Assembly: GCF_003386095.1 (NCBI RefSeq)
Contig: NZ_QREG01000003.1
Location: 186,001 to 250,000 of the forward strand
Length of the DNA: 64,000 bases
DNA from: Marinoscillum furvescens DSM 4134
GTDB lineage: Bacteria; Bacteroidota; Bacteroidia; Cytophagales; Cyclobacteriaceae
Direction: 5' to 3'
The number at the start of each line of letters is the position of its first letter. Position 1 is the stretch's first letter. Both the position numbers and the translations under genes were made by a program. The notes under the pieces are model-generated. The model had not been told where the DNA came from. It ran no database searches and worked only from the letters and a program-made list of their open reading frames with translations. Below are positions 41,359 through 56,692 of this stretch, in pieces.

Positions 41359-44247
41359 GTGCGCATTTCAGGATTAATCACAAGTCTGCTATTGAGTCTA
41401 TCGCTGCTGGCTGCAGCCCAGCAGCAACGTTACCTATATTATGACCTGAGTGAGGCCGTAGCTAGTGAGGTAATCAAGGGCATTGTAAAGGATGAACAGG
41501 GGCTAGTTTGGTTTGCGACAGACCAGGGCGTACTCAGCTATGACGGCAACCAAACCCGGCTATACAACAAGGGTTTGCAAAGCAACTACACCAAAACCTT
41601 CTTATCGACTAAATCAGGCCAGCTCATAGTAGTGAATGACCGTGGCATGCGCGAAATCATTCGCACTCAGGACTCTGTATACTTTGCTCCACTACAATTG
41701 GACAACTATACATTTAACGAACCTTTGGAATACCCTAAATCACTTTATCAAGATCAGAGAGGCAACATCTGGGTTGGTGAAGTAGATGGTGTAGTACGCA
41801 TCAATGCCAACGGGTTCAAAAGATTTGAACTGGGGCCTGATTTTCAATCCATAAGCTATCATAGGACTTTCACTTTTCAGGAAGACGCATTTGGCACACT
41901 TTGGATTGCTCCATATAAAGGCTCACTACTAAGGTACCTGCCAGAGTCTGATCAACTACAGCCCGTAAATATTGATTTACCTGTATCCGACGTTACTGGA
42001 TTTGCCGTACTAAGAGGTGACTATCTGGTGATAGGAGGAAAAGAAGGAGTTTTTCAGATAAAAACCGACAGTGAGCAAAACATTCTGGAAACACGTTTTT
42101 TCAATTCCGTTGACAACATTTCAGCATTAGCGGTACAAAAAAATCAGGTATATATCGGCACCTGGGATGAAGGACTGTATGTCTTGCCGTATGGTACTCA
42201 AGTACCTGAAAAAGTAACAGAAGTGGATTTTGTAGATGTGGTGGACTTTTTCCATGATGAACGTGCCAACGAAATCTGGGTTGTAGGAAGTGAAAATGTA
42301 GGGCTCATTTCCTTTTCTGAAATCACGTCACCGGCCTCTATTGGGAGTTTTCGAATAGAAGCTGCTACGTTTGGTGATAACCAAAACCTGTATTACTCCA
42401 TTGGTCAGGAAATAAGGCAGGCAAACCTATCCAGTGCCTTACCCCCCACAACGCTTACCAGCTCTAAAACCAACTATTTTGATCAACTACTCGCTGATAA
42501 GGACAAACTTTGGGTTGGTGATTCTTTTGGGTCTATCTACTTCCTGGATATCACCAACAACCAACTCACCAAAGTGAAAGACAGCACGGGAGTAGCTATC
42601 AAATACATCTTTAACGACGCACAATCCAACAAATGGTTTGCAGGAGATCCAGAAAAAGTGATCCGAATCGAAAGCCAAACAAACGACATCACCTTTTTTG
42701 AGCTACAGGGATCTATTGTGTTTGCCCAAAGTGCGAGCACTCAAACACTCTATTGCGGCACAAACGATGGACTCTATACTTTCAACAACAACTCAAAGAG
42801 TTTTGTACGCCATAAAGCCACAATGAATTTCTCCCCAACCAAACCTTTAGCTATTGAAGATATTTGTTTTGACTTACAAGACAACATGTGGATAGCCACA
42901 AACCAGGGGTTGCTCCTCAAGCGATCTGGAGAAAACCGTCTGTTACGCCATGAACTTCCAGGCATGCCCGAAGACGAACCGTACAAAGCCATCGTCTGGA
43001 AAGATGGTTTGGTCTGGCTGGCCAGCGACTATGGGCTTACGGCTTACAATGGTGAAGAAGCCATACTTTATACCACTAAAAACGGGTTGCCGTCTAAGAT
43101 TCTCACCTGGAGAGGCCTGAAAACATACACAGACGGAGTATTTATCTCCACAGCCAAAGGAGCTGCCCTTATCCACAGTGAACAGGTTAAATTTGAAAAA
43201 ACCCCTGTTCCAAGCCTGAAGTCCATCATCAGCGGAAACAAATCGCTCGTACCAAATGAAAATGGTCAGGCAGTAATCCCTTACAAAGGAAACCTCCAGG
43301 CAGAATTTGTAACGCTCACTTATCCGGGATTAGACATTAGATACCAAAGCCGAGTAATAGGACTCGATGACACATGGTCAGAACCTAGTGACAACCGACA
43401 GGTAAATTTTCTTGGGTTTTCTGAAGGAGAGTATATACTGGAGGTTCGCGCCCGCGAAACAGGATTGCTGTGGAGTGCCCCTGTTCAATATGCCTTCATC
43501 GTAGAGGTTCCCTGGTTTCGTACCTGGTGGGCATACCTGCTCTTCGCTACAGGTGTAGCAGCCATTCTCATCCTATCCACCAGAGCGTACAATTATCACC
43601 TTATACTCCAGAAACGAAGATTCAAAAAAATCATTGACGAACGTACACAGGAAATCAAGCGTCAGAAAAATGAAATAATAGAACAAAAAAATAGAATCAT
43701 CCAGCAAAAAGAAGAGCTGCTTTCAAAAACTGAAGCCATCCACAAATCCAAGCAAGCACTCTCTGATGCTGATGTAAACTTTCTCCACCTCAAGGAAAAG
43801 CAGCTTCAAGATCAGATCGAATATCGAAACAAGCAGATCACTACGCATACGCTCCACATCATCCAAAAAAACGAATCCCTCAGAGAGCTAAAAACCAAGC
43901 TGGAAACCATTGTAAAGTCTTCACAAAAAGCGCCTCACCAAGAGATCAAAAAAACCATCAAAATCATCGATGAAAGTTTCCGATTGGACAAAGACTGGGA
44001 AGATTTCAAGCTTTACTTTGAACAGATCTACACGGGCTTCTACACCAAACTCAAGGTGAATTGCCCGGCCCTCACCACCCAGGAGCTCAGACACTGTGCC
44101 CTCATCCGACTCAATTTGTCACTACAGGAATGTGCCACCATACTGGGGATCTCTCCAGACAGTGTAAAAGTCTCTCGGTCCCGCATTCGCAAAAAACTCA
44201 ACCTCGAAAAAGGTCAGGGATTAACGGATTTCATACTATCCATCTAG
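41359..44247 (+). CDS. Membrane-spanning sensor and LuxR-type regulator of the starch locus (SusR-like)
   Basis: A 962-residue protein beginning at a GTG with a signal-anchor (MRISGLITSLLLSLSLLAAAQ). The periplasmic part is a two-component-regulator propeller with repeated D-x-x-G-x-hydrophobic-W-hydrophobic motifs (DEQGLVWFATDQGVL, DQRGNIWVGEVDGVV, DAFGTLWIAPYKGSLL, DLQDNMWIATNQGLLL). A Y_Y_Y-type Ig-like domain is near 640-715 (IRYQSRVIGLDDTWSEPSDNRQ). One membrane helix lies at about 720-745. A long cytoplasmic coiled coil (about 750-860) precedes a LuxR/GerE-like HTH (about 905-955, LTTQELRHCALIRLNLSLQECATILGIS). There is no histidine kinase or receiver domain. It lies directly upstream of susC, so it is the likely activator of the glucan locus, sensing oligosaccharide in the periplasm. 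Confidence 0.88.
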   Translation: MRISGLITSLLLSLSLLAAAQQQRYLYYDLSEAVASEVIKGIVKDEQGLVWFATDQGVLSYDGNQTRLYNKGLQSNYTKTFLSTKSGQLIVVNDRGMREIIRTQDSVYFAPLQLDNYTFNEPLEYPKSLYQDQRGNIWVGEVDGVVRINANGFKRFELGPDFQSISYHRTFTFQEDAFGTLWIAPYKGSLLRYLPESDQLQPVNIDLPVSDVTGFAVLRGDYLVIGGKEGVFQIKTDSEQNILETRFFNSVDNISALAVQKNQVYIGTWDEGLYVLPYGTQVPEKVTEVDFVDVVDFFHDERANEIWVVGSENVGLISFSEITSPASIGSFRIEAATFGDNQNLYYSIGQEIRQANLSSALPPTTLTSSKTNYFDQLLADKDKLWVGDSFGSIYFLDITNNQLTKVKDSTGVAIKYIFNDAQSNKWFAGDPEKVIRIESQTNDITFFELQGSIVFAQSASTQTLYCGTNDGLYTFNNNSKSFVRHKATMNFSPTKPLAIEDICFDLQDNMWIATNQGLLLKRSGENRLLRHELPGMPEDEPYKAIVWKDGLVWLASDYGLTAYNGEEAILYTTKNGLPSKILTWRGLKTYTDGVFISTAKGAALIHSEQVKFEKTPVPSLKSIISGNKSLVPNENGQAVIPYKGNLQAEFVTLTYPGLDIRYQSRVIGLDDTWSEPSDNRQVNFLGFSEGEYILEVRARETGLLWSAPVQYAFIVEVPWFRTWWAYLLFATGVAAILILSTRAYNYHLILQKRRFKKIIDERTQEIKRQKNEIIEQKNRIIQQKEELLSKTEAIHKSKQALSDADVNFLHLKEKQLQDQIEYRNKQITTHTLHIIQKNESLRELKTKLETIVKSSQKAPHQEIKKTIKIIDESFRLDKDWEDFKLYFEQIYTGFYTKLKVNCPALTTQELRHCALIRLNLSLQECATILGISPDSVKVSRSRIRKKLNLEKGQGLTDFILSI

Positions 44248-44275
44248 ACAACTACTCCTGCGAACTGTCCTAAAA

Positions 44276-44360
44276 GGTTAACGAGTCGTTAACTCGTGCA
44301 TCTTACGCTTACTCCCTTATCCCTCACCAAAAAATTCTTTGAGTTAACCTTTTGTTAACC
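44276..44360. promoter_or_regulatory. Array of four GTTAAC boxes upstream of susC
   Basis: GTTAAC occurs at 44277, 44288, 44343 and 44354. Within each pair the spacing is 11 bp, and the two pairs are 66 bp apart, so all four lie on one face of the helix. The first pair also forms a perfect GTTAACGA-G-TCGTTAAC inverted repeat (44277-44293). The second pair is a direct repeat of GTTAACC. This is the only stretch over 300 bases without a gene in the window (44248-44605). I found no TAnnTTTG-type -7 box in the rest of it, which would fit a promoter depending on an activator. The SusR-like regulator just upstream is the obvious candidate. Confidence 0.65.
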
Positions 44361-44605
44361 TCACAAATCTCCTTGTATCTGTACCTGAAGTGCCATTTTG
44401 GCGCTTTTCCACCGGGAGACGAGTAGCTTCTTTCCCACCCATTTCCGACCCTTCTGATAACCTATTGTGCCCCCTTACACATTGGTGAATTGCCCATTGT
44501 CCTTTGATATTAGAGTCTGGGTTTTGAAATATTCACATTTAGCAAAGTGATTCTCAGCCCACTATTGCGAATTATTCAAAATGTATCATCTATTAATGAA
44601 AAAGT

Positions 44606-47600
44606 ATGAAGAAGAGTTACTTTAAAGCAAGTTTAGCCGTCATACTCACGCTGCTTACTAGTATTAGTCTACTAGCTCAGGAGCGTGTGGTATCAGGAAC
44701 GGTAACGGATGCATCAGATGGAAATCCCATCCCGGGAGCCAACGTAGTGGTAAAAGGTACTACGTCTGGAACAGTAACTGATATTGATGGCAACTATACC
44801 ATCAGTGTATCAGACGAAACCGTATTGATATTCTCATTTATAGGATATGCCTCAACAGAAGTATCTGTGGGCAACCGATCCACAGTAGACGTTGCACTTA
44901 GTCTTGACATACAGTCACTTTCAGAAGTAGTCGTCATAGGCTATGGTGAGCAGGAAAAAGGAGACGTTACAGGCGTGGTAGCAGCAGTGGATGCTGATGA
45001 ATTTAACAAAGGCGCAATTGTATCTCCACAAGAACTTCTCACTGGTAAAGTGGCCGGAGTACAAATCACCTCAAATAGCGGTGAGCCTGGAGGTAAATCA
45101 ACAATTCGTATACGTGGTGGTACTTCTATAACCGCAGGAAATGAACCCCTATTTGTAATAGATGGTGTACCTATCACCAACGACGCACACGATCCAGGAG
45201 GACAAAGCGGCGGAAGAAACCCGCTAAACTTTCTCAACCCGGCCGATATTGCCAACATCACCGTACTAAAGGATGCTTCTGCCGCAGCTATCTATGGTTC
45301 TAGAGGAGCAAATGGCGTAGTGATCATCACTACCAAGAGTGGTAAAAAAGGCGACAAAGCACGAGTAACCTACGATGGCTACTTCTCTGTAGCTGAAATG
45401 GCTGGTGAAATCAACATGCTCAATGCAGATGAGTTTAGCAATGTAATCATTGCCAAGCATGCGGATAAAATTGGCCTAATAGGTGAAGCTAACACCAACT
45501 GGTATGACCAAATCACCCAAAGAGCGCTAGGACAAAACCACAACCTCTCTGTAAGCGGTGGCACTGACAATGCAAGTTATCGGGTCTCGGTAAACCATCA
45601 GGACATAGAAGGAGTTATCAAAAACTCCTACACACAGCGCACTGGCGTAAGCCTCAACTACAACCAGTCGCTCCTTGATGACAAGCTCAACATTACTGCC
45701 AACATCAAAAGCTCGTATACCAAAGACCGTTTCGATGCTGGAGCCGTAGGTGCTGCTATCGTATTTGACCCTACTCAGCCAGTATACGACGCTGGAAGCC
45801 GATGGGGTGGATATTTTGAATACGATGCTGACCTTGCTCCCGACAACCCGGTTTCTTCTACAAATCAGGTCCAGGGCTTTGGCGAATATGTCCGAAATCT
45901 GGGTAACATCCAGATCGAATACAAACTCCCTGTGGAGGGTCTATCGGCAAAGGCTAACCTTGCTTACGATGTGAATTTTGGAGAACGCAGAAGGTTTCAG
46001 CCTTACACGCTGCGTAACCAATCTGCTGATAGTGGAGAGGTACGCATCGAAAACCTAAAGCGGATCAATCCGCTAATGAATTTCTTACTAACCTACAAGA
46101 AGGATCTTCCATCCATTCAAAGTGCCATTGATGTAACTGGTGGATACGAATTCCAGCAGTTTAGCTCAGACTTTCCTTCTTACAGAGCATACAACCTTCC
46201 TACGAATGTGTACAGCTTTTACAGTGCCAACGTAGCAGAAGAATCAGAAACGTTTAACTTCCACCAGAGCAACCGCATCATCTCTTTCTTTGGCAGATTA
46301 AACTACTCACTGCTTGATCGCTACTTGCTTACTGCGACAGTTCGAAGAGACGGCTCATCGCGATTTGGACCAGACAACCAATATGGTATATTCCCTTCAC
46401 TGGCACTAGGTTGGAGAATAATAGACGAGCCTTTTATGGCTGGAGTATCTAATATTTTCAGCGATCTAAAAGTACGTGCTAGCTACGGTATCACCGGAAA
46501 CCAGGAATTTAGCAATTACCAATACCTTGCTACTTACACTCCAGGCCAAATCACTGCACAGTACCAGTTTGGAAATGACTTTGTAAGCACAATAAGACCA
46601 AATGGCTATGATCAAGGAATCAAGTGGGAAGAAACCACCTCATTCAACTACGGAATAGATTTTGGCTTTTTTGACGGACGCCTTACAGGTAGTGTAGAAT
46701 ACTACGAGAAATACACGGATGACCTGTTGTTTGAAGTAGCCGTCCCGGCTGGCACCAACCTCACTAACAGAATCATCACCAACATTGGTGAAGTAGAAAA
46801 TAAGGGTATCGAGCTTGCACTAAATGGCTATATCATTGACAATGCAGACTTCCAATGGACAGCAGGCTTCAACATAGCGCACAACAAAAACCGAATTGTT
46901 ACCCTTGACGGATCAGATAGCGAAGATTTTGAAGGTTTCCTTACAGGAGGAATCAATGGAGGTACGGGTAACAACATCCAAATCCTCAAAGTAGGCGAGC
47001 AGGTGAACTCCTTCTATGTATTCAAAGCGAAACTAGACGAAGATGGGCTTCCGCTCGAAGATGGTATCGACCACAACGAGGATGGCCAAATCAACCTGGC
47101 TGATATCTACGAAGACACCAATGGTGATGAAACAGTAAATAGCGAAGATCGCGATATCTACAAAAGCCCGGCACCAGACCTGATCATGGGTCTTACCTCA
47201 AACATGAAGTACAAAGGGTTTGATTTCTCTTTCACTGTACGAAGCAACGTAGGCGGCTATGTATACAACAACATCGCCTCATCTAGTGGATTCTATAACG
47301 GCATGGAAGGCGCCTCCAACTGGCTCCAAAATGTGCATGCCTCTGTGTTAGAAACCAACTACTCCACTCCTCAGTATTTTTCAGATTACTATGTGGAGGA
47401 TGCATCATTTGTACGCATAGATAACGTATCCCTCGGCTACACCTTCAGCCAACTGGAGCAAGCCAACATCCGCGTATACGGTACGGTGCAAAATGCTTTT
47501 GTGCTATCTGGATACTCTGGGCTAGACCCAGAAGTAGGCGGCGGTATAGACAACAATCCATACCCCAGAGCACGAACCTTCCTGTTGGGCCTTAGCCTTG

Positions 47601-47608
47601 GATTTTAA
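44606..47608 (+). CDS. susC: SusC-like TonB-dependent outer-membrane glucan transporter
   Basis: A 1000-residue outer-membrane receptor. Signal peptide MKKSYFKASLAVILTLLTSI to LLAQ. A carboxypeptidase-regulatory-like domain (about 28-110, GTVTDASDGNPIPGANVVVKG, FSFIGYASTEV) is followed by the TonB plug (about 115-235, QELLTGKVAGVQITSNSGEPGG, IRIRGGTSITAGNEPLFVIDGVPI, ILKDASAAAIYGSRGANGVVIITTK) and a large beta barrel. A Ca-binding-like DHNEDGQINLADIYED is near 835. The C-terminus ends in an aromatic residue (LGLSLGF). It has no N-terminal FecR-interacting domain, so no anti-sigma pair is needed. susD follows after 23 bp, and two GH13 enzymes follow later, so the cargo is an alpha-glucan such as maltooligosaccharides. 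Confidence 0.95.
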   Translation: MKKSYFKASLAVILTLLTSISLLAQERVVSGTVTDASDGNPIPGANVVVKGTTSGTVTDIDGNYTISVSDETVLIFSFIGYASTEVSVGNRSTVDVALSLDIQSLSEVVVIGYGEQEKGDVTGVVAAVDADEFNKGAIVSPQELLTGKVAGVQITSNSGEPGGKSTIRIRGGTSITAGNEPLFVIDGVPITNDAHDPGGQSGGRNPLNFLNPADIANITVLKDASAAAIYGSRGANGVVIITTKSGKKGDKARVTYDGYFSVAEMAGEINMLNADEFSNVIIAKHADKIGLIGEANTNWYDQITQRALGQNHNLSVSGGTDNASYRVSVNHQDIEGVIKNSYTQRTGVSLNYNQSLLDDKLNITANIKSSYTKDRFDAGAVGAAIVFDPTQPVYDAGSRWGGYFEYDADLAPDNPVSSTNQVQGFGEYVRNLGNIQIEYKLPVEGLSAKANLAYDVNFGERRRFQPYTLRNQSADSGEVRIENLKRINPLMNFLLTYKKDLPSIQSAIDVTGGYEFQQFSSDFPSYRAYNLPTNVYSFYSANVAEESETFNFHQSNRIISFFGRLNYSLLDRYLLTATVRRDGSSRFGPDNQYGIFPSLALGWRIIDEPFMAGVSNIFSDLKVRASYGITGNQEFSNYQYLATYTPGQITAQYQFGNDFVSTIRPNGYDQGIKWEETTSFNYGIDFGFFDGRLTGSVEYYEKYTDDLLFEVAVPAGTNLTNRIITNIGEVENKGIELALNGYIIDNADFQWTAGFNIAHNKNRIVTLDGSDSEDFEGFLTGGINGGTGNNIQILKVGEQVNSFYVFKAKLDEDGLPLEDGIDHNEDGQINLADIYEDTNGDETVNSEDRDIYKSPAPDLIMGLTSNMKYKGFDFSFTVRSNVGGYVYNNIASSSGFYNGMEGASNWLQNVHASVLETNYSTPQYFSDYYVEDASFVRIDNVSLGYTFSQLEQANIRVYGTVQNAFVLSGYSGLDPEVGGGIDNNPYPRARTFLLGLSLGF

Positions 47609-47631: not shown

Positions 47632-49200
47632 ATGAAAAATATATTTAAACTAATGATCGTAATGGTGGTGACCCTGTCGGCTTGTACCGACCTGGACGTA
47701 CCACCAAAGAGTGACGCAACTGGCGAGTTGATCTTCAACGACCCAGCAACCTACGAGGCATTTCTAGCGAAAATCTATGCAGGGTTTTCCCTTACGGGAC
47801 AGCAAGGTCCTGCCGGAGCTGGTGACATCAGAGGAATAGATGAAGGTGCATCTAATTATGTGAGACAATACTGGCAACTACAGGAGCTACCTACAGACGA
47901 AGCTGTAGTAGGCTGGGCAGATGGTAATTTGCCTACACTCAACACCCAGACCTGGACAGATGACAATGAATTCATCACAGCCATGTACTACCGAATTTTC
48001 TTCAATGTATCGCTTGCCAATGAGTTTTTGCGCGAAGCTTCAGAAGAAAAACTTACCGAACGAGGGTTCGATGAGGACACAAAAGCTACCATACAACAGT
48101 ACCGCGCAGAGGCACGTTTTGTAAGAGCGCTAAGTTACTGGCACGGACTAGACCTCTTTGGGAACATCCCTTTCTACACGGAGGAAGATGCTATTGGGTC
48201 TGAAGCTCCGGACCAGGCTACTCAGCAAGATGTCTTTACCTATATCGAAAATGAACTGATCGATATCGAGACTCAGCTCAAAAGTTTTGTATCTACGCCA
48301 TATGGGCGTGCAAGCAAAGAGGCGCTTTGGGCACTACAAGCTAAGCTATACTTAAACGCTGAAGTATATACCGGCACTGACCGATCTGCAGACTGTCTGG
48401 CAGCATGCGAAAAAATCATCAACTCGGGAGCGTTTGCCCTGGCTGATGACTACCAGCTCAATTTCGGAGCTGACAACCACACGTCTAGTGAAATCATCTT
48501 TGCGGCTTTGTTTGACGGTGAGCACATCAGAACCTGGGGCGGCACTACTTATCTGGTAAACGCAGCTATCGGTGGCACCATGGATCCTGCCAACTATGGC
48601 GTAGCGGGTGGCTGGAGTGGTCTTCGAACCACAAGCGCACTGGTAAACCTCTTCCCAGATGAAACAGGTGACCTGGACGGTAGAGCTATTTTCTATACAG
48701 ATGGTCAAACCAAAGAAATCACGAGCATTACGGATTTCACCAATGGCTATGCCGTACCGAAGTTTACAAACATCACTTCAAATGATGCACAGGGGTCTGA
48801 TGAAACCCACCCAGATACTGATTTTGCTTTCTTCCGACTTGCAGATGTCTACCTGATGTACGCAGAGTCTGTGGTACGCGGTGGAGGCGGCAGCAGTGCT
48901 ACTGCTGTGGAATACGTCAACATGCTCAGAGAGCGGGCCTATGGCAGCACTGCAGGCAACATCACTGCAGCTGACCTAACGTTGGATTTTATCCTGGATG
49001 AGCGTGCGCGTGAGCTATACTGGGAAGGCCACAGACGTACAGATTTGATTCGCTTCAATCAGTTTACTGAAAATGGTGTTTGGCCATGGAAAGGTGGAAC
49101 TCAGGCAGGACAGACCACAGGTGCTTACCTGAACCTGTACCCTATCCCTTCGGCAGATTTGATCGCCAACCCTAAGCTGAAGCAAAACGACCAATACTAA
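47632..49200 (+). CDS. susD: SusD-like surface glycan-binding lipoprotein
   Basis: A 522-residue lipoprotein of the RagB/SusD family that lies over the SusC barrel and captures oligosaccharides at the cell surface. The lipobox is at VTLSACTDLD (Cys18). TPR-like helices carry the family features QYRAEARFVRALSYWHGLDLFGNIPFYTEED near 160-190, ALWALQAKLYLNAEVYTG, and C-terminal AFFRLADVYLMYAESVVRGGG and DFILDERARELYWEGHRRTDLIRFNQF. The C-terminus (YLNLYPIPSADLIANPKLKQNDQY) is typical. Length is normal. It is encoded between susC and the SusE/F-like gene with no terminator in between. Confidence 0.95.
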   Translation: MKNIFKLMIVMVVTLSACTDLDVPPKSDATGELIFNDPATYEAFLAKIYAGFSLTGQQGPAGAGDIRGIDEGASNYVRQYWQLQELPTDEAVVGWADGNLPTLNTQTWTDDNEFITAMYYRIFFNVSLANEFLREASEEKLTERGFDEDTKATIQQYRAEARFVRALSYWHGLDLFGNIPFYTEEDAIGSEAPDQATQQDVFTYIENELIDIETQLKSFVSTPYGRASKEALWALQAKLYLNAEVYTGTDRSADCLAACEKIINSGAFALADDYQLNFGADNHTSSEIIFAALFDGEHIRTWGGTTYLVNAAIGGTMDPANYGVAGGWSGLRTTSALVNLFPDETGDLDGRAIFYTDGQTKEITSITDFTNGYAVPKFTNITSNDAQGSDETHPDTDFAFFRLADVYLMYAESVVRGGGGSSATAVEYVNMLRERAYGSTAGNITAADLTLDFILDERARELYWEGHRRTDLIRFNQFTENGVWPWKGGTQAGQTTGAYLNLYPIPSADLIANPKLKQNDQY

Positions 49201-54853: not shown

Positions 54854-56692
54854 ATGAAGAAGTATCTATTTATTGCCTGTGCTGTGCTGGTGACGATGAT
54901 CACCACTGCTCAAGCTCAAAACAAAAACATTGAGCGCGTAGAGCCTCCTCACTGGTGGGTGGGAATGGAAAACTCCAAACTACAATTGCTTATAAAAGGC
55001 GACAATATCGGAGGCACTACCTCGATAAATGTAAAGCCAGAAGGCCTTAGCATAGTTAAAATCCACTCTGTGGAAAACACTGACTATCTCTTTGTAGATG
55101 TGGAACTAAGCAAAGCTGAAGCAGCCGAGTACCAGTTGACGCTAAAACAAAATGGGAAGAAGGTGGGAAGCTGTACCTATGAGCTAAAAAAGCGCACCAC
55201 CTCTCGAGATGTAATAGACAACAGTGATGTACTCTACCTGATCACCCCAGACCGATTCGTAAACGGCAACCCTGAAAATGATAGTGTAGACCCGCTTAGA
55301 GACAAGCTAAACAGGGAACACTACAATGGCCGCCATGGAGGTGATCTCCAGGGCATCCTATCTAAGCTGGACTACATGGAAGACCTGGGCGTCACCACGC
55401 TTTGGTTAAATCCTGTGCTAGAAAATGCCATGCCAGAGGTTTCTTATCACGGCTATGCCATCACAGACTACTACCAGGTAGACCCACGATATGGTAGCAA
55501 TGAGCTCTACAAGAAGCTGTCTGATGAACTCTCCAAAAGGAATATGAAGCTGGTGATGGACATGGTCTTCAACCACTGCGGATCAGAACACTGGTGGATC
55601 AAAGAGCCCCCAATGGAAGACTGGGTGCACTTTGGCACCAACTATACCAATACCAATCACGCCATGGCTTCTATACCAGACCCTCATGGTGCAGATGCTG
55701 ACCGTGAGCTAATGGAAAAAGGCTGGTTCGTGTCGGTAATGCCCGACCTCAACCATGACATCCCGTTTTTGGAAGAATACCTGATTCAAAACAGCATCTG
55801 GTGGATAGAATATGCTGGCCTGGAAGGCATCCGAATGGATACGTACCCTTACAACAAAGCCGAAACCATGCAGCGCTGGGCCGAACGCGTACTCGCGGAG
55901 TACCCGGACTTTTACCTGGTGGGTGAAACCTGGATAGGCGATGAACTGCAAGAGGCTTACTGGGCTCCTCAGCCAGGCGCTGATTACAACTCTAAACTCA
56001 CCAGCATTACGGACTTCCCACTTTGCTATGGGCTGCACAATACCTTTAAGCCAGAGGGGGACATCCGTGCAGTATATGATGTTTTGAGCAAGGATTACGC
56101 GTACCATGATCCTATGGCCAACAAGATATTTGCTGACAACCATGACATGGATCGCTACTACTACACCATCGGCGAAAACCTGGATAAGTTTAAAAATGCG
56201 ATGACTGTGCTGCTTACTACCCGCGGTATTCCTCAGATTTACTACGGCACGGAAATGCTCATGAGAAAGTATGGTGAACACGGAGACCTTCGAGAGGATT
56301 TTCCAGGAGGATGGACTGGCGACGAGCGAAACGCATTTACGGCCGAAGGACGTACCGAAGAAGAAAATGAAGCCTTCGACCACCTTCGAATCCTCCTCAA
56401 TTGGCGCCAAACCAGCGAAGCAGTAGCCTCGGGCACACTTAAACACTTTGTGCCGCACGACAATGTGTATGTATACAGCAGAGAAAGTGCCAGTCAAAAA
56501 ATCGTGGTTTTTGTCAACAACAGCAATGAACCACGCTCAGTCAGTTTGGACAGATTTCGTGAGATCATTAAGCCAAATGTCACTGCAACGAACGCCCTAA
56601 ATGGCGAGCAGATGACCATCGGCACGTCACTCTCCATGGAGCCAAACAGTAGTTTGATTTTAGATATTCCAATAGAAATGGATGCCAACTAA
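54854..56692 (+). CDS. susA: Periplasmic neopullulanase/cyclomaltodextrinase (SusA-like GH13)
   Basis: A 612-residue enzyme with signal peptide MKKYLFIACAVLVTMITTAQAQ. It has a short cyclomaltodextrinase N-terminal domain (about 25-120, RVEPPHWWVGMENSKLQLLIKG) and a GH13 catalytic domain. The site residues are D329 (GIRMDTYPYN), E358 (LVGETWIG) and D431 (ADNHDMDR), with DMVFNHCGSEHWW (region I) and GGDLQGILSKLDYMEDLGV before them. A beta-sandwich C-terminal domain follows. It would cut maltooligosaccharides brought in by SusC/SusD. It begins 16 bp after the amylase gene, so the two are co-transcribed. A strong terminator follows. Confidence 0.94.
   Translation: MKKYLFIACAVLVTMITTAQAQNKNIERVEPPHWWVGMENSKLQLLIKGDNIGGTTSINVKPEGLSIVKIHSVENTDYLFVDVELSKAEAAEYQLTLKQNGKKVGSCTYELKKRTTSRDVIDNSDVLYLITPDRFVNGNPENDSVDPLRDKLNREHYNGRHGGDLQGILSKLDYMEDLGVTTLWLNPVLENAMPEVSYHGYAITDYYQVDPRYGSNELYKKLSDELSKRNMKLVMDMVFNHCGSEHWWIKEPPMEDWVHFGTNYTNTNHAMASIPDPHGADADRELMEKGWFVSVMPDLNHDIPFLEEYLIQNSIWWIEYAGLEGIRMDTYPYNKAETMQRWAERVLAEYPDFYLVGETWIGDELQEAYWAPQPGADYNSKLTSITDFPLCYGLHNTFKPEGDIRAVYDVLSKDYAYHDPMANKIFADNHDMDRYYYTIGENLDKFKNAMTVLLTTRGIPQIYYGTEMLMRKYGEHGDLREDFPGGWTGDERNAFTAEGRTEEENEAFDHLRILLNWRQTSEAVASGTLKHFVPHDNVYVYSRESASQKIVVFVNNSNEPRSVSLDRFREIIKPNVTATNALNGEQMTIGTSLSMEPNSSLILDIPIEMDAN

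What the first reader, a model, noticed from the sequence alone, without database searches (positions are those of the whole stretch)
44276..44360. Four GTTAAC boxes phased on one helical face upstream of susC
GTTAAC occurs at 44277, 44288, 44343 and 44354: two pairs, 11 bp within each, 66 bp between pairs (6 x 11). All four therefore face the same side of the DNA. The first pair is also a perfect 17-bp inverted repeat (GTTAACGA-G-TCGTTAAC). GTTAAC is seen only sporadically elsewhere (single copies inside cysS and the TviB-type dehydrogenase gene). No -7 consensus box was found downstream of it. The regulator encoded directly upstream has a LuxR-type HTH but no kinase, so this looks like its operator for cooperative binding or looping.
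Basis: partly seen in the sequence, partly recalled or inferred. Interest (0 to 1): 0.7.

Follow-up and report, generated by a model that had tools for sequence, protein, structure and literature searches.

The report
Operator of a propeller-type starch regulator
The four GTTAAC boxes are two conserved tandem sites, probably bound by the membrane sugar sensor encoded just upstream, and with a third weaker site at the promoter they appear to be how that sensor switches on a starch-uptake operon; no experiment has yet shown it.

Summary
Confirmed and extended. GTTAAC lies at 44277, 44288, 44343 and 44354. Exact GTTAAC-N5-GTTAAC occurs twice in the 5.96-Mb genome, both here. Downstream of 16 relatives of the upstream regulator (32-57% identical), 15 of 16 keep at least 11 of 12 box bases at 11-bp spacing; other spacings tested reach 0-2 of 16. 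Consensus: TTTGTTAACCnTTTGTTAACC. In 390 family genomes the motif (up to 1 mismatch) occurs in 12 of 15 with the regulator and 10 of 375 without. Corrections: the two pairs are inverted copies of one site; the 17-bp palindrome is not conserved; same-face phasing between pairs is not established; a third site, 44456-44472, was missed. Its TTGT stands 40 bp before a -7-like element in the window and 14 relatives, and more distant relatives peak at the same distance. The regulator has a propeller/Y_Y_Y sensor, a membrane segment, a coiled coil and an HTH, no kinase, and precedes a starch operon. Most likely it is a SusR-like one-component activator using an upstream operator and a promoter-proximal site. 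It does not match the SusR family model.

The parts
41359..44247 (+). Regulator gene, 962 aa: signal peptide (read by eye), Reg_prop propeller, Y_Y_Y domain, one membrane helix, coiled coil, C-terminal HTH; no kinase or receiver
   Evidence: Pfam; phmmer to HTCS sensor structures 4a2l and 3v9f; AlphaFold model, mean pLDDT 78.6; alignment of 8
44077..44199 (+). HTH region of the regulator (about residues 907-947)
   Evidence: Alignment A1; helices 907-917, 922-929, 933-947 in the model; GerE E 2.6e-4, below Pfam's cut-off
44275..44295 (-). Site 1: first GTTAAC pair, an inverted copy of site 2
   Evidence: Leave-one-out profile scan: minus-strand hit (score 6 or more) upstream of the core here and in 7 relatives, 8 of 17
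44343..44360 (+). Site 2, the core: GTTAACCTTTTGTTAACC, tandem half-sites 11 bp apart
   Evidence: A core was picked downstream of the regulator in all 17; leave-one-out profile ranks it first in 15 of 17; spacing control and shuffles
44456..44472 (+). Site 3: weaker promoter-proximal site GATAACCTATTGTGCCC, same direction as site 2
   Evidence: Rule-based search found such a site in 14 of 17; one more (L006) assigned by eye; none in L130, L132
44482..44484 (+). Candidate -33 TTG, 17 bp after the TTGT of site 3
   Evidence: TTG at this offset in 6 of 15, the commonest offset
44505..44512 (+). Candidate -7 element TGATATTA (3 of 6 consensus bases here; 3-5 of 6 in relatives), 40 bp after the TTGT of site 3
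   Evidence: Offset scan
44388..44408 (+). Weak hairpin plus T run, possible terminator of the regulator mRNA (uncertain)
   Evidence: Read; below the scanner's threshold; no consistent hairpin across relatives
44606..47608 (+). susC, predicted first target gene
   Evidence: TIGR04056 817.8 bits; Pfam
47632..49200 (+). susD
   Evidence: PF07980
49220..51109 (+). SusE/SusF-like starch-binding protein
   Evidence: PF16411
51172..54837 (+). GH13 alpha-amylase with DUF4961 and type IX sorting domain
   Evidence: Pfam
54854..56692 (+). GH13 cyclomaltodextrinase/neopullulanase-like
   Evidence: PF09087, PF00128, PF10438

Best explanation
The boxes are the upstream operator of a membrane-anchored, kinase-less (SusR-like) activator of the starch operon. 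The propeller/Y_Y_Y domain probably senses a maltooligosaccharide in the periplasm (inferred). The signal passes through one membrane helix and a coiled coil to a cytoplasmic HTH (domain order shown, signalling inferred). Each site is two TTTGTTAACC half-sites 11 bp apart on one DNA face, fitting two HTH subunits side by side (inferred from sequence). The strong core (site 2), with an inverted copy in about half of the relatives (site 1), loads the protein (inferred). A weaker site 3, whose TTGT lies 40 bp before the -7 element and next to the -33 region, places it against RNA polymerase as a class-II activator (position shown, contact inferred). Distal and proximal sites are probably bridged by one oligomer with a short DNA loop (inferred).
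For: A core in 17 of 17 with the regulator, 32-57% identity in the 16 others. Window-defined pattern against shuffles in 16 relatives: 0-1 of 500 shuffles as good in 15, 9 of 500 in L101, Fisher-combined p about 1e-24; of 16 spacings tested only 11 bp is conserved, 15 of 16 against 0-2 of 16. Co-occurrence in 390 genomes: 12 of 15 with the regulator, 10 of 375 without, p 1.3e-14; 13 of 23 sites lie 28-306 bp downstream of a regulator copy (coordinates). The one same-genus genome without a full-length orthologue has no site at up to 2 mismatches. Controls: at least 11 of 12 box bases in 0 of 30 SusR-family downstream regions and 1 of 40 other C-terminal relatives; none upstream of the regulator. 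Fixed 40-bp distance from site 3 to -7: mean 4.07 of 6 against 1.81 at other offsets (sd 0.43, best other 2.8), 0 of 20,000 random offset sets as high. A second set of 38 C-terminal relatives also peaks at 40. A susC, susE or GH13 homologue follows on the same strand in 16 of 16 relatives.
Against: No binding, expression or start-site data exist. Activation rather than repression is inferred from geometry and from SusR. The window's own -7 element matches 3 of 6 bases and its site 3 is weak. Site 1 is found in only 8 of 17, and phasing between sites is not significant. Three of the 15 genomes with the regulator have the core only at 2 or more mismatches. Counts alone do not separate motif from chance: the pattern read backwards occurs about 28 times in about 26 of the 390 genomes (my count) against 23 times for the motif; at 2 mismatches in the genus the motif gives 15 matches and the control 19, at 3 mismatches in the own genome 11 and 9. 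It is the position beside the regulator that is exceptional (control matches in 1 of 15 regulator genomes). Ten motif genomes lack the regulator; in 9 of these 10 the fetched 3-kb locus shows no relative of the regulator, its tail or SusC, and the tenth (L164) has a distant tail relative about 1.1 kb away on the other strand; 3 of the 10 sites lie in open frames. The tandem rule and the 40-bp rule were first seen by eye, then tested, and I had looked at part of the second set before testing it.
Confidence: 0.75

Rival explanations
1. The sites bind the upstream regulator, but it acts as a repressor or anti-activator: the distal pair and the proximal site close a loop that blocks the promoter until sugar releases it.
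For: Site 1 is inverted relative to site 2, as in some looping operators (recalled).
Against: Site 3 lies upstream of the -33 region at one fixed distance, the usual place for an activator; none of the three sites overlaps or follows the -7 element. SusR is an activator according to PMC3878776 (passages and section 7 read).
Confidence: 0.1
2. The boxes are bound by another protein, for example a global carbohydrate regulator or nucleoid protein, and merely sit in the same intergenic region.
For: Ten of 375 genomes without the regulator carry a near-match, though the reversed control pattern is at least as common there.
Against: Presence follows the regulator (12 of 15 against 10 of 375); the own genome has only this locus at up to 1 mismatch; the site lies directly downstream of the regulator also where the first homologous gene is susE or GH13 rather than susC (L009, L106, L130, L131).
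Confidence: 0.1
3. The palindromes act in RNA, as a 3' end or leader element of the regulator transcript.
For: The pair 44277-44293 is a perfect inverted repeat and lies between the regulator's stop codon and a weak hairpin.
Against: The 8-1-8 palindrome is not conserved while the 11-bp direct repeat is; no Rfam family at gathering score; the same unit occurs in both directions.
Confidence: 0.03

Closest known systems
SusR (Bacteroides thetaiotaomicron BT3705 and relatives; NCBIfam NF058541)
   Same: Membrane-spanning one-component regulator of a starch operon with a cytoplasmic C-terminal HTH; predicted paired sites 67 or 77 bp apart (PMC3878776). In 10 of the 30 family loci fetched (capped list) I see TACTTTTTT-type sites 64-65 bp apart downstream.
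   Different: No match to NF058541; propeller/Y_Y_Y sensor; half-site TGTTAACC in 11-bp tandem; distal pairs inverted to each other; three sites.
TPR-type C-terminal relatives (frames of about 555-620 codons, for example L013-L024, L070-L076)
   Same: Share the last ~190 aa and, in part, the 40-bp site-to--7 distance. In 6 of 14 chosen loci the best upstream match lies 64-65 bp from the proximal site in the same direction; in 5 of 14 a match at 32-33 bp is among the three best, weakly in L072 and L074.
   Different: TPR-like sensor instead of a propeller (tested for one, P0001); half-sites vary (GTNNACC, GTTGCC).
Hybrid two-component systems (4a2l/3v9f-type sensors)
   Same: Same sensor type: Reg_prop and Y_Y_Y; phmmer hits 4a2l, 3v9f, 3va6, 3ott.
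   Different: No histidine kinase, receiver or AraC-type HTH.
BT3442 family (NCBIfam NF053779)
   Same: The tail, residues 782-950, matches this model's C-terminal part, E 9.6e-6.
   Different: 24.6 bits against a cut-off of 940; no match of the N-terminal part.

Membership tests
SusR family (NF058541) | Match to the curated profile (cut-off 480 bits) | tested here: not met
   No match of the 962-aa regulator at E 0.01; none in the own genome at E 1e-40
SusR family (NF058541) | Membrane-spanning, no kinase, C-terminal HTH | tested here: met
   (membrane helix near 720-745 read from sequence and model; no dedicated predictor run)
SusR family (NF058541) | Two direct-repeat sites 67 or 77 bp apart (published prediction) | tested here: not met
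   Sites 1 and 2 are 66 bp apart but inverted; sites 2 and 3 are direct but 113 bp apart
SusR family (NF058541) | TACTTTTTT-type half-site | tested here: not met
   Absent from 44248-44605 by reading; seen in pairs in 10 of 30 SusR-family loci
Hybrid two-component system | Periplasmic Reg_prop/Y_Y_Y sensor | tested here: met
Hybrid two-component system | Histidine kinase, receiver and AraC HTH | tested here: not met
   No such Pfam domain at E 0.001
LuxR/GerE-type HTH regulators | GerE domain above Pfam's gathering score | tested here: inconclusive
   21.0 bits against 23.5; Sigma70_r4_2 20.0 against 25.7
Class-II activator operator | Site next to -33 at fixed distance from the -7 element | tested here: met
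   By sequence only:
Class-II activator operator | Contact with RNA polymerase and activation | not testable with these tools
   Needs expression and footprinting data

The most novel reading that the evidence does not exclude
Membrane-tethered one-component activators of Bacteroidota, with propeller or TPR sensors but one kind of coiled-coil/HTH tail, share one promoter grammar: tandem half-sites 11 bp apart, a proximal site whose half-site starts exactly 40 bp before the -7 element, and a stronger distal site 32 to about 150 bp upstream, sometimes inverted. DNA would be looped while held at the membrane, and operons for such regulators could be read from sequence alone.
Probability: 0.45. 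Interest if true: 0.7.

Novelty: new variant of a known kind. Interest (0 to 1): 0.52.

Why it matters
Polysaccharide-use operons of Bacteroidota are numerous, and the paper read here states that DNA sites of SusR remained uncharacterized in 2013 (PMC3878776, section 7). A conserved operator with a fixed distance to the promoter lets regulators of this tail type be matched to operons, predicts transcription starts, and gives a small testable system for activation by a DNA-binding protein that stays in the membrane.

Tried and rejected
Same-face phasing between pairs: Rayleigh tests at 10.5 bp gave p 0.016-0.029 on all values, but 0.09-0.24 on distinct values, 0.14 (site 1 to core, with the two 24-bp values) and 0.71 (core to site 3) after merging near-equal spacings, and 0.28 for a combined set; I do not claim it. 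Exact four-box pattern in 390 order genomes: only the own genome, because relatives differ by a base or in spacing. Autoregulation: no site at 11 of 12 or better in about 400 bp upstream of the regulator (112 bp in L128) in the window or the 16 relatives (best 9). Other GTTAAC-like hits in the genus: a site conserved in three genomes (L116-L118) lies between other genes and was not pursued. Flammeovirga-like relatives (name recalled, from no call; L102-L105, 28-29% identity in the tblastn piece) have no boxes and, by reading, no intergenic region with susC in the 700 bases printed; their best hits lie in a kinase-like ORF; they are dropped from the counts of 17. Terminator between sites 2 and 3: not consistent. 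The sigma-70 hit at 44504 is at chance level (1 found, 1.1 expected). RNA element: no Rfam match. The tail alone has no phmmer hit in the PDB at E 0.01.

Rows dropped before counts: duplicates L061-L064 (same regulators as L003, L008, L004, L009), L100 (=L007), L126 (=L005), L127 (=L006), judged by equal downstream sequence or contig length; L102-L105 as above, L022 and L027 as near-duplicates, and ten loci without a tail match. Site choices by hand: the 17 cores were picked by eye before the profile was built; L006's site 3 was reassigned by eye (rule score 7 of 12); L130/L132's inverted partner at 24 bp was assigned by eye. Of seven literature searches none listed, by title and abstract start, a GTTAAC-type operator for a propeller-HTH regulator; the library is open-access only. 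PMC3878776: passages and section 7 read; PMC7366714: passages only; all others: listings only.

Full report
Observation. The hexamer is not over-represented in the window (7 found, 14 expected by shuffling), but the arrangement is unusual: exact GTTAAC-N5-GTTAAC occurs at two places in the 5.96-Mb genome, both here. With up to 3 mismatches to the extended consensus the own genome has 11 matches, no more than the reversed control (9), and only site 2 is perfect; the next best has 2 mismatches and lies in an ORF.

Neighbourhood. Upstream is a 962-aa protein with Reg_prop repeats, a Y_Y_Y domain and a weak GerE/sigma-region-4-like HTH, no kinase. Its sensor is related to solved HTCS sensors (4a2l, 3v9f); its tail matches the C-terminal part of the BT3442 family model, far below that model's cut-off. 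The AlphaFold model (8 sequences, mean pLDDT 78.6, pTM 0.55) gives strands through about residue 715, a long helix 723-783 that begins with the hydrophobic segment, a coiled coil of low confidence, and helices at 907-947. Downstream on the same strand are susC, susD, a SusE/F-like protein and two GH13 enzymes: a starch or maltodextrin operon.

Conservation. I collected relatives of the regulator from genome contigs, the genus (6 genomes, 5 with a full-length copy), the order (7 of 390 genomes at E 1e-120) and the family (15 of 390). After removing duplicates and four distant copies without the operon (L102-L105) there are 17 including the window. A core site can be picked downstream of the stop codon in all 17; a leave-one-out profile ranks that core first in 15 of 17 (in L009 site 1 and in L131 site 3 score higher). 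In 16 of 16 relatives a susC, susE or GH13 homologue follows on the same strand. Using only the window's pattern, the best match in the first 350 bp (500 for L129) is 12 of 12 in 9 relatives, 11 of 12 in 6 and 10 of 12 in one (L101); Fisher-combined p is about 1e-24. Sliding the spacing from 6 to 21 bp shows that only 11 bp is conserved (15 of 16 with at least 11 of 12; each other spacing 0-2 of 16). Controls: 0 of 30 SusR-family genes and 1 of 40 other C-terminal relatives reach 11 of 12; upstream of the regulator none does.

Specificity across genomes. TGTTAACCNTTTGTTAACC with up to one mismatch occurs 23 times in 22 of 390 family genomes. The reversed control pattern occurs about 28 times in about 26 genomes (my count), so the total is at chance level; what is not at chance is where the motif falls. 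Twelve of the 15 genomes with a regulator have it, 10 of the 375 without (Fisher p 1.3e-14), and 13 of the 23 sites lie 28-306 bp downstream of a regulator copy (coordinates). The other ten are scattered, as chance would give: 9 show no relative of the regulator, its tail or SusC in the 3-kb locus, the tenth (L164) has a distant tail relative about 1.1 kb away on the other strand, and three (L166, L167, L171) lie in open frames of 684, 155 and 123 codons.

Anatomy. The half-site is TTTGTTAACC, repeated after 11 bp. Site 1 is an inverted copy of site 2; a minus-strand hit of the leave-one-out profile (score 6 or more) occurs upstream of the core in 8 of 17 at 64-95 bp. The 17-bp palindrome of site 1 in the window is incidental. 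A third site was found by rule (GTTAACNNNTTGTNNCC, at least 9 of 12) in 14 of 17, 83-147 bp downstream of the core and in the same direction. Measured from its TTGT, the match to TAnnTTTG (the -7 consensus given in PMC7366714, passages read) peaks at exactly 40 bp: 3.76 of 6 over all 17, including three without a valid site, against a mean of 1.81 (sd 0.36) over offsets 10-89 and 2.59 for the runner-up, its neighbour 39. Over the 15 with a site (one assigned by eye) it is 4.07 against 1.81, best other offset 2.8, 0 of 20,000 random sets as high. TTG is commonest at offset 17 (6 of 15), where a -33 element would lie. In the window the -7 element is TGATATTA at 44505-44512, a poor match, so its promoter may depend strongly on activation (inference).

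Wider family. The last ~190 residues are shared with regulators that have other sensors, TPR-like in the one scanned (P0001). In 38 such downstream regions a joint score of tandem half-sites and -7 element is highest at the same 40 bp (11.29 of 17; mean 10.61, sd 0.19 over 28 offsets; runner-up 10.95 at 37). Fifteen of 38 loci score 12 or more; none of the ten with long frames (about 780-990 codons) does. I had looked at part of this set before, so the test is not wholly independent. In 14 loci chosen for good proximal sites, the best upstream match is 64-65 bp away in L013, L014, L016, L017, L020 and L024; a match at 32-33 bp is among the three best in L011, L012, L070, L072 and L074; three (L019, L073, L076) show neither. 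Members of the SusR family proper show a different half-site (TACTTTTTT) in pairs 64-65 bp apart in 10 of the 30 loci fetched, in line with the 67/77 bp predicted for Bacteroides (PMC3878776, section 7).

Mechanism. Shown by sequence: conserved tandem sites, orientation, fixed distance of site 3, co-inheritance with the regulator. Inferred: that the regulator binds them, that it activates, that sites 2 and 3 are bridged, and that the ligand is a starch oligosaccharide. The family name SusR is not given to this protein, because the defining profile was tested and not met; 'works like SusR' is a separate and likely statement.

Limits. The tandem rule and the 40-bp rule were noticed by eye before testing; relatives within the genus are not independent; phasing between sites was tested and is not significant after merging; no experimental data were available.

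Noticed in passing
L004 and L008, about 340-405 bp after the regulator's stop codon: A short ORF (20 codons, MKKPYQLSI.YHLV.EEAPC) precedes susC in both relatives; it may be a leader peptide. Read by eye.
   Followed up: no
L116, L117, L118 (three genomes of the genus): A GTTAAC pair at 11 bp, with a third box 8 bp on in L116 and L117, between divergent genes of about 265 and 471 codons; not beside the regulator studied.
   Followed up: partly
L112 (G002:C29, near 12278): GTAAACCATTTGTAAACC lies directly after another regulator gene with the same tail type, in front of a further gene: a likely second operator of the wider family.
   Followed up: partly
   Followed up: partly
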